NCBI GenBank assembly: GCA_024708885.1
Contig: JANJXT010000061.1
Coordinates: 1-64,000 of the forward strand
Length of the DNA: 64,000 bases
Reading direction: 5' to 3'
Origin: Thiobacillus sp.
GTDB taxonomy: Bacteria; Pseudomonadota; Gammaproteobacteria; Burkholderiales; Thiobacillaceae
Made by a program: the position numbers and the translations under genes. Under the pieces are notes generated by a model. That model was not told the origin of the DNA. It did no database searches and saw only the letters and a list, made by a program, of their open reading frames with translations. How positions within the stretch are numbered: the stretch's first letter is position 1; each line of letters begins with the position of its first letter. Below, one piece after another: positions 11,210 to 41,429 of the stretch.

Positions 11210-11373
11210 CCTGGAAAAAGCAGTTGAACCACAGAGACACAGAGAACAGAGAGAAAAACATGTGCTTGTATTCTTTCCTTGGTTCACCCGGCGGGTGAGT
11301 GGGGAAAAGCACGGAGAATCCCTGTTTCTCCGGTTTCTCCGTGCCTCTGTGTCTCTGTGGTGCGGAATATGGG
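11210..11373 (+). mobile_element. MITE-like non-autonomous element, copy A (164 bp)
   Basis: CCTGGAAAAAGCAGTTGAACCACAGAGACACAGAG...CTCTGTGTCTCTGTGGTGCGGAATATGGG; flanked by direct repeat ATCAA (11205-11209 and 11374-11378); homologous to the reverse complement of 41023-41202. Confidence 0.85.
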
Positions 11374-11504
11374 ATCAACCGGATGCAGTTGGGGATTTGA
11401 CCGGACAGGTCCAAAAGCCCGCGACACCGCCGCCGGGATGGCAGTGGCTGTCGCTGGGCTGGTTTTGGGCATACACTGAACGCAGTCGAGTGAGCCGCGC
11501 GCGT

Positions 11505-40313: not shown

Positions 40314-40600
40314 ATGAATTATCCTGTCGGACGGCTGTGCGCGCGGTCAACGACAACCTATCGGCCTGGGGATCATCTTACCAGCACGGCATATTCCGGC
40401 CTTCGAATAGAGGCATTTGCGAATCGGCGGATCTGGACGTACCGCTACCGCAGCCCTTTGGACGGAAAGCTGCGGCAAATCAAGATCGGGTCATGGCCGG
40501 CGATGTCGATCCATGCAGCAATAGCCGCATGAGAGCGGCTGCGCGATGAGCGCAATACGGGAAGGATCCTCGAGTCAACGCCCAACTGGTGTTCCCACCA
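40314..40600 (+). pseudogene. Fragment of a tyrosine-integrase arm-type (DUF4102-like) N-terminus with in-frame TGA
   Basis: GLRIEAFANRRIWTYRYRSPLDGKLRQIKIGSWPAMSIHAAIAA-stop(40530-40532)-ERLRDERNTGRIL; no catalytic domain downstream. Confidence 0.75.
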
Positions 40601-40702: not shown

Positions 40703-40969
40703 ATGACCGCAGCAACCAAAGTGCTGACCGCACATGTGCCGCTTCCGCTGGCCGACAAGGTAGATCAGATGGCTTCACGGCTTGAGCGCTCGCGCGGCTG
40801 GATCATGAAGCAGGCGCTTTCCGCCTGGATCGCCCAGGAAGAGGAGCGCGACAGACTGACCCAAGAAGCGCTGGCTGACGTAGACGCCGGCCGTGTCATC
40901 GATCACCAGGCCGTGCAAGCGTGGGCTGAGAGCCTTGGCACTGACCAGCCGCTGCCGGTGCCGCGTTGA
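40703..40969 (+). CDS. CopG/ribbon-helix-helix antitoxin (ParD-like)
   Basis: TKVLTAHVPLPLADKVDQMASRLERSRGWIMKQALSAWIAQEEE; overlaps the toxin ORF by TTGA. Confidence 0.85.
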   Translation: MTAATKVLTAHVPLPLADKVDQMASRLERSRGWIMKQALSAWIAQEEERDRLTQEALADVDAGRVIDHQAVQAWAESLGTDQPLPVPR

Positions 40970-41429
40970 TAGCGCTGAAGTGGAGCAGCAAGGCGCTTTC
41001 CGATCTGGCGCGCTTGTATGAACCTAAATTCCGCACCACAGAGGCACAGAGGCACAGAGAAACCCGAAAAACAGGGCTTCTCCGCGTTTTTTCCCACTCA
41101 TCCATCGGGTGGGCCGCGGCAGGAATGCAAGCGTATGTTTTTGCTCGCTGCTCGCTGTTCTCTGTGTCTCTGTGTCTCTGTGGTTCAACTGCTTTTTCCA
41201 AGATGAATTCCTGGCTCCGTTGAACAAATCCGCCGCCACGCGGGCGGTGCAGGTGCTGGCCAAGGCCCCGACCATCCTGCTGACCAACCCACGCATCGGC
41301 GAGCAACTTTTCCAGTTCGAGCCGCGTGAGGTACGGCGAATTCTGGTCGGGGAGTACGAGGTTCGCTACGAACTTCAGGATTCGATCATCTACGTGCTGC
41401 GGCTGTGGCATACCCGAGAGAGCCGCTGA
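40966..41429 (+). pseudogene. ParE/RelE-type toxin gene interrupted by MITE-like copy B
   Basis: 5' part MIALKWSSKALSDLARLYE, 3' part FLAPLNKSAATRAVQVLAKAP...FEPREVRRILVGEYEVRYELQDSIIYVLRLWHTRESR; removing 41018-41202 joins them in frame as 92 aa. Confidence 0.9.
41023..41202 (-). mobile_element. MITE-like non-autonomous element, copy B (180 bp)
   Basis: Reverse complement CTTGGAAAAAGCAGTTGAACCACAGAGACACAGAG...TGCCTCTGTGGTGCGGAATTTAGG; flanked by ATGAA (41018-41022 and 41203-41207). Confidence 0.88.

What the first reader, a model, noticed from the sequence alone, without database searches (positions are those of the whole stretch)
40966..41429. Toxin gene split by the MITE-like element; in-silico excision restores the ORF exactly
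Removing 41018-41202 (one ATGAA copy plus the element) joins ...LSDLARLYE to FLAPLNKSAATRAVQVLAKAPTILLTNPRIGEQLFQFEPREVRRILVGEYEVRYELQDSIIYVLRLWHTRESR in frame, giving a 92-aa ParE/RelE-like toxin whose start overlaps the antitoxin stop (TTGA). The intact ribbon-helix-helix antitoxin is therefore left beside a dead toxin. The disruption looks recent because both halves are otherwise uninterrupted.
Basis: partly seen in the sequence, partly recalled or inferred. Interest (0 to 1): 0.75.

Follow-up and report, generated by a model that had tools for sequence, protein, structure and literature searches.

The report
Mobile repeat splits a ParE toxin
In a Thiobacillus genome a 180-base mobile repeat, one of about 40 copies, has jumped into a bacterial toxin gene and broken it while leaving its antitoxin intact; the repeat's ends match those found across many phyla around an uncharacterised nuclease gene (GxxExxY), which may point to what moves it.

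Summary
At 41018-41207 a 180-bp element (41023-41202) sits inside a ParE-family toxin gene, flanked by a 5-bp duplication (ATGAA). Six natural relatives, five in the same genus, carry the same antitoxin-toxin overlap with the gene uninterrupted at this point; the best one has a single ATGAA there. So this is a real transposition into a toxin gene, leaving an intact RHH antitoxin beside a split toxin.

Correction: the window also has ATA where all six relatives have the toxin's ATG start, so the insertion is not the only lesion.

The element is one of about 41 near-full-length copies in this Thiobacillus genome, with a 5-bp target duplication of consensus WTNAW. Its tips are inverted arrays of CACAGAGR. 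Similar tips flank genes for GxxExxY (PDDEXK_3) nucleases: inverted short-repeat arrays in all ten found in relatives, and in 64 of 78 from many phyla against 3 of 416 control positions. The genome's only detected GxxExxY copy lies between such tips and is itself broken. That GxxExxY moves the element is plausible but unproven: coding copies show no target duplication. No stand-alone insertion sequence with these ends was found. I searched the two toxin halves separately and did not join them.

The parts
40703..40969 (+). RHH (CopG-like) antitoxin, 88 aa, intact
   Evidence: RHH_1 PF01402 E 2.5e-9; 83-87% identical over 84 aa to antitoxins next to toxins in L037, L038 and L043
40966..41022 (+). 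first part of the split ParE-family toxin (19 codons including the first ATGAA); TTG start overlaps the antitoxin stop; second codon ATA where relatives have ATG
41018..41022 (+). target-site duplication, left copy ATGAA
41023..41202 (.). 180-bp MITE-like element, CCTAAATTCC...GCTTTTTCCAAG
   Evidence: 41 near-full-length copies in the genome; boundaries from 46 copies; RNA fold z -8.0
41035..41061 (+). left tip: array of CACAGAGR units
   Evidence: inverted-repeat pair I1
41158..41184 (-). right tip: inverted array (CTCTGTGT units on the + strand)
   Evidence: inverted-repeat pair I1
41203..41207 (+). target-site duplication, right copy ATGAA
41205..41429 (+). second part of the split ParE-family toxin (74 codons and stop)
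   Evidence: ParE_toxin PF05016 E 1.1e-8, profile 17-87 of 89 only
11212..11376 (-). second copy of the same element in the window (match coordinates), intergenic, flanked by ATCAA

Best explanation
A 180-bp non-autonomous mobile element (a MITE) inserted into the 5' part of a ParE-family toxin gene of a type II toxin-antitoxin pair. Insertion used a 5-nt staggered cut at a WTNAW site (ATGAA), which gap repair duplicated. This shifted the reading frame and cut the first 19 codons off from the other 74; the antitoxin upstream is untouched. Shown: element, copies, duplication, natural uninterrupted homologues. Inferred: loss of toxin function; the staggered cut (from the duplication). Weakly inferred: the element is the non-coding member of a class whose coding members carry a GxxExxY PD-(D/E)XK nuclease, and that nuclease or its partners recognise the CACAGAG tips. 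The confidence given is for the insertion into the toxin gene; for the nuclease step it is about 0.3.
For: Antitoxin RHH_1 and toxin second part ParE_toxin. Toxin uninterrupted at this point in six relatives with the same gene overlap, three with full-length ParE_toxin matches. L037 has a single ATGAA at the junction. 41 copies. Duplication in one register in 18 of 46 copies against at most 8 by re-pairing, with T at position 2 and A at position 4 in all 18. Young subfamily, 91-97.5% identical to this copy. GxxExxY link: same tips around the genome's own GxxExxY remnant; all ten relatives' and own copies between inverted short repeats; 64/78 against 3/416 in a multi-phylum survey; genomes with the tip pattern carry PF13366 in 8 of 13 against 26 of 236.
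Against: Toxin loss is not tested, and ParE activity of the family was not shown here. The relatives' TA pairs lie in other genomic contexts, so they are empty alleles of the gene, not of the orthologous locus. Against the GxxExxY step: coding copies show no WTNAW duplication (0 of 58); several genomes with many tips have no detected GxxExxY; the own copy is broken.
Confidence: 0.92

Rival explanations
1. The element is an ordinary MITE of a DDE-transposase insertion sequence not yet seen in this genus (5-bp duplication, ends CCT...AGG); the CACAGAG arrays are its own structure and the tie to GxxExxY is convergence or shared use of a hairpin. The insertion into the toxin stands; only the mover differs.
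For: Clean 5-bp duplication and fixed outer ends; coding GxxExxY copies lack both the duplication and these outer ends.
Against: All 18 exact copies of the right end motif in 37 genomes sit beside CACAGAG tips, none at a stand-alone insertion sequence; GxxExxY genes across phyla have tips of the same motif type.
Confidence: 0.4
2. Assembly artefact: two unrelated loci were joined at a dispersed repeat.
For: Some contigs of this assembly end inside copies of the element (L008-L011); it is a draft genome of 67 contigs, 84% complete.
Against: Both flanks belong to one gene, match the same relatives at similar identity, and carry a matching 5-bp duplication equal to the single site in L037.
Confidence: 0.03
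3. The split is functional: the second part is expressed from a start inside the element (106-aa ORF 41109-41429), or the hairpin is processed from the RNA.
For: ORF 41109-41429 is open from a GTG inside the element; strong hairpin, z -8.
Against: The ORF lacks the first 16 positions of the ParE profile; no Rfam intron or ribozyme match; the close relatives' toxin frames have no element at this point.
Confidence: 0.04

Closest known systems
ParE_toxin (PF05016) with RHH_1 (PF01402) antitoxin, type II TA
   Same: gene order, stop-start overlap, domain matches
   Different: toxin split by an element and its start codon apparently degraded
Bacterial MITEs such as Chunjie of Geobacter uraniireducens (reviewed in PMC10969869)
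   Same: small, non-coding, inverted ends, direct repeats, tens of copies of variable size
   Different: tips are tandem arrays of an 8-nt unit; 5-bp WTNAW duplication; no parent insertion sequence found; Chunjie's own sequence could not be read here
GxxExxY protein (TIGR04256 / PF13366 PDDEXK_3)
   Same: coding genes lie between inverted arrays of CACAGAG-type units
   Different: the element here codes for nothing of that family and has a target duplication, which coding copies lack
23S rRNA intervening sequences with S23p ORF (Coxiella, PMC4990558)
   Same: small selfish element with inverted ends and tandem heptamers beside a small ORF
   Different: sits in 23S rRNA and codes for the S23p (IVP) protein, not a nuclease

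Membership tests
ParE toxin (PF05016), type II TA | Full ParE domain in one frame | tested here: not met
   Only profile positions 17-87 in the second part; relatives match 1-88
ParE toxin (PF05016), type II TA | Adjacent antitoxin overlapping the toxin | tested here: met
   RHH_1 match; same overlap in six relatives
ParE toxin (PF05016), type II TA | Toxicity neutralised by the antitoxin | not testable with these tools
   needs expression in a laboratory strain
MITE | Short, non-coding, terminal inverted repeats | tested here: met
   180 bp, 27-nt arms 93% complementary
MITE | Target-site duplication of fixed length | tested here: met
   5 bp WTNAW in one register, 18 of 46 exact
MITE | Many dispersed copies | tested here: met
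   41 near-full-length copies
MITE | Parent element with a transposase sharing its ends | tested here: inconclusive
   none found among 37 genomes for the exact right-end motif; the own genome is 84% complete, and ends with mismatches or in other genomes were not searched
GxxExxY-associated element class (proposed here) | Inverted arrays of CRCRRAG-type units at both tips | tested here: met
GxxExxY-associated element class (proposed here) | Carries a GxxExxY gene | tested here: not met
   no ORF of that family in the element; a broken copy lies elsewhere in the genome

The most novel reading that the evidence does not exclude
GxxExxY nucleases (Cas4-like PD-(D/E)XK fold, no DDE or HUH transposase) are the mobilising enzymes of a cross-phylum class of small elements bounded by inverted arrays of CACAGAG-type repeats, and the toxin-splitting MITE is a non-autonomous member cut into WTNAW sites by that nuclease.
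Probability: 0.2. Interest if true: 0.85.

Novelty: new variant of a known kind. Interest (0 to 1): 0.5.

Why it matters
A MITE breaking a TA toxin while the antitoxin survives is an ordinary but clean example of TA decay. The wider point is that an abundant, uncharacterised nuclease family is consistently embedded in inverted short-repeat arrays of one motif type across phyla; this gives a testable handle on what GxxExxY proteins do and on how MITEs without a visible parent insertion sequence move.

Tried and rejected
REP/RAYT origin: four Y1_Tnp genes exist; in their locus windows three had no paired CACAGAG tips and one (L033) had a CACAGAG/CACGGAG pair about 0.9 kb away, and Y1 elements make no target duplication (own knowledge), so not favoured. 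Self-splicing or riboswitch RNA: only two chance-level Rfam matches, far below their gathering scores. Parent IS with the same ends: not found. Target duplication at coding GxxExxY copies: none above chance. Empty site of the GxxExxY copy at the pilB-pilC junction: many other genus members carry other repeats there, so no clean boundary. Conserved synteny of the TA pair: none. Literature for the tip motif or for GxxExxY function: nothing relevant in the held library.

Full report
Observation. The second part alone matches ParE_toxin at E 1.1e-8, but only from profile position 17.

Natural uninterrupted alleles. Searching 60 related genomes with the second part alone gave close homologues in G033, G009, G006, G027 and G056 and a truncated one in G026. 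In L037-L041 and L043 the separately searched first and second parts lie back to back, directly behind the same antitoxin with the same stop-start overlap. Three of these natural 92-aa proteins were scanned and match ParE_toxin over 1-88 of 89. L037 reads TTGT-ATGAA-TTCCT at the junction, one ATGAA where the window has two. The relatives' pairs are not in the window's genomic context, so they are empty alleles of the gene and not of the locus.

State of the toxin. dN/dS of the second part against relatives is 0.11-0.24, similar to the relatives among themselves (0.06-0.21), and the antitoxin against relatives is 0.05-0.12; most of that divergence predates the insertion. In all six relatives the second codon is ATG, overlapping the antitoxin stop; in the window it is ATA. 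The TTG before it follows from the antitoxin's last codons, so the usual start is probably lost as well. Toxin decay with antitoxin retention recurs: G026 has two intact antitoxins beside truncated toxins; G032 and G018 carry toxin remnants with stops.

The element. 41 near-full-length copies lie in the own genome and related ones in G013, G010 and G004, with shorter tip matches in more genus members. Aligning 46 copies fixes the boundaries: CCTRNATTCCGC then CACAGAG units, a core, CTCTGTG units, then GTTCAACTGCTTTTTCCARG. In 18 of 46 an exact 5-bp repeat sits at one register, mean 2.6 and maximum 8 on re-pairing; T at position 2 and A at position 4 in 18 of 18, A or T at both ends. Copies in other genus members share ends and tips with unrelated cores. 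The window copy is 91-97.5% identical to a subfamily whose other members compared are 96-100% alike, so the subfamily probably moved recently. As RNA the element folds with z -8.

What might move it. The own genome's single PF13366 hit is a GxxExxY gene with an internal deletion, lying between CACAGAG arrays. All ten PF13366 genes in the 60-genome search sit between inverted arrays of short repeats, of several unit types (judged by eye). In a survey of GxxExxY genes from many phyla, inverted matching arms within 160 nt score at least 13 in 64 of 78 loci against 3 of 416 displaced control positions, mostly CRCRRAG-type units. In 249 genomes of the phylum, 8 of 13 with the tip pattern also have PF13366, against 26 of 236 without (Fisher p 4e-5, 2e-4 without the own genome; not corrected for kinship). 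The protein model (pLDDT 95.9) resembles SSO0001 best, at moderate TM-score (0.53) and E 5.8e-3; SSO0001 is a Cas4-type nuclease (own knowledge). Against a direct role: coding copies show no WTNAW duplication (0 of 58), and several tip-rich genomes have no detected GxxExxY. No stand-alone insertion sequence with the exact right-end motif was found in 37 genomes. I hold the tips to be related to those of GxxExxY elements, and the nuclease to be a candidate, not a demonstrated, mobiliser.

Host. The closest GxxExxY loci with names are from Thiobacillus, and G002 contig C9 has the same length as a Thiobacillus denitrificans RG contig, so the window's genus is most likely Thiobacillus.

Verdict. 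The split toxin is a real, well-supported MITE insertion, ordinary in kind. The tip-GxxExxY association is the part worth pursuing.

Noticed in passing
L090-L115 (e.g. L092:1501-1818, L109, L107): Most 23S_rRNA_IVP (PF05635) four-helix-bundle genes in the genus also lie between inverted arrays of short repeats, with other units (GGGGTCAGGATTCA, GAGAGTC, GTGAGTG, GTGAGGC); judged by eye.
   Followed up: partly
L116-L136, pilB-pilC junction: The same intergenic spot holds a GxxExxY element in some genus members and different non-coding repeats in others: a hotspot.
   Followed up: partly
window 40314-40529: Fragment with an integrase Arm-DNA-bind_3 match (E 4.3e-6) just upstream of the TA pair; perhaps a remnant of the element that brought it.
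   Followed up: no
window 11212-11376: Second copy of the element, intergenic, with ATCAA duplication.
   Followed up: yes
L043 4-288 and 1196-1605: Two antitoxin copies each with a truncated toxin in G026.
   Followed up: partly
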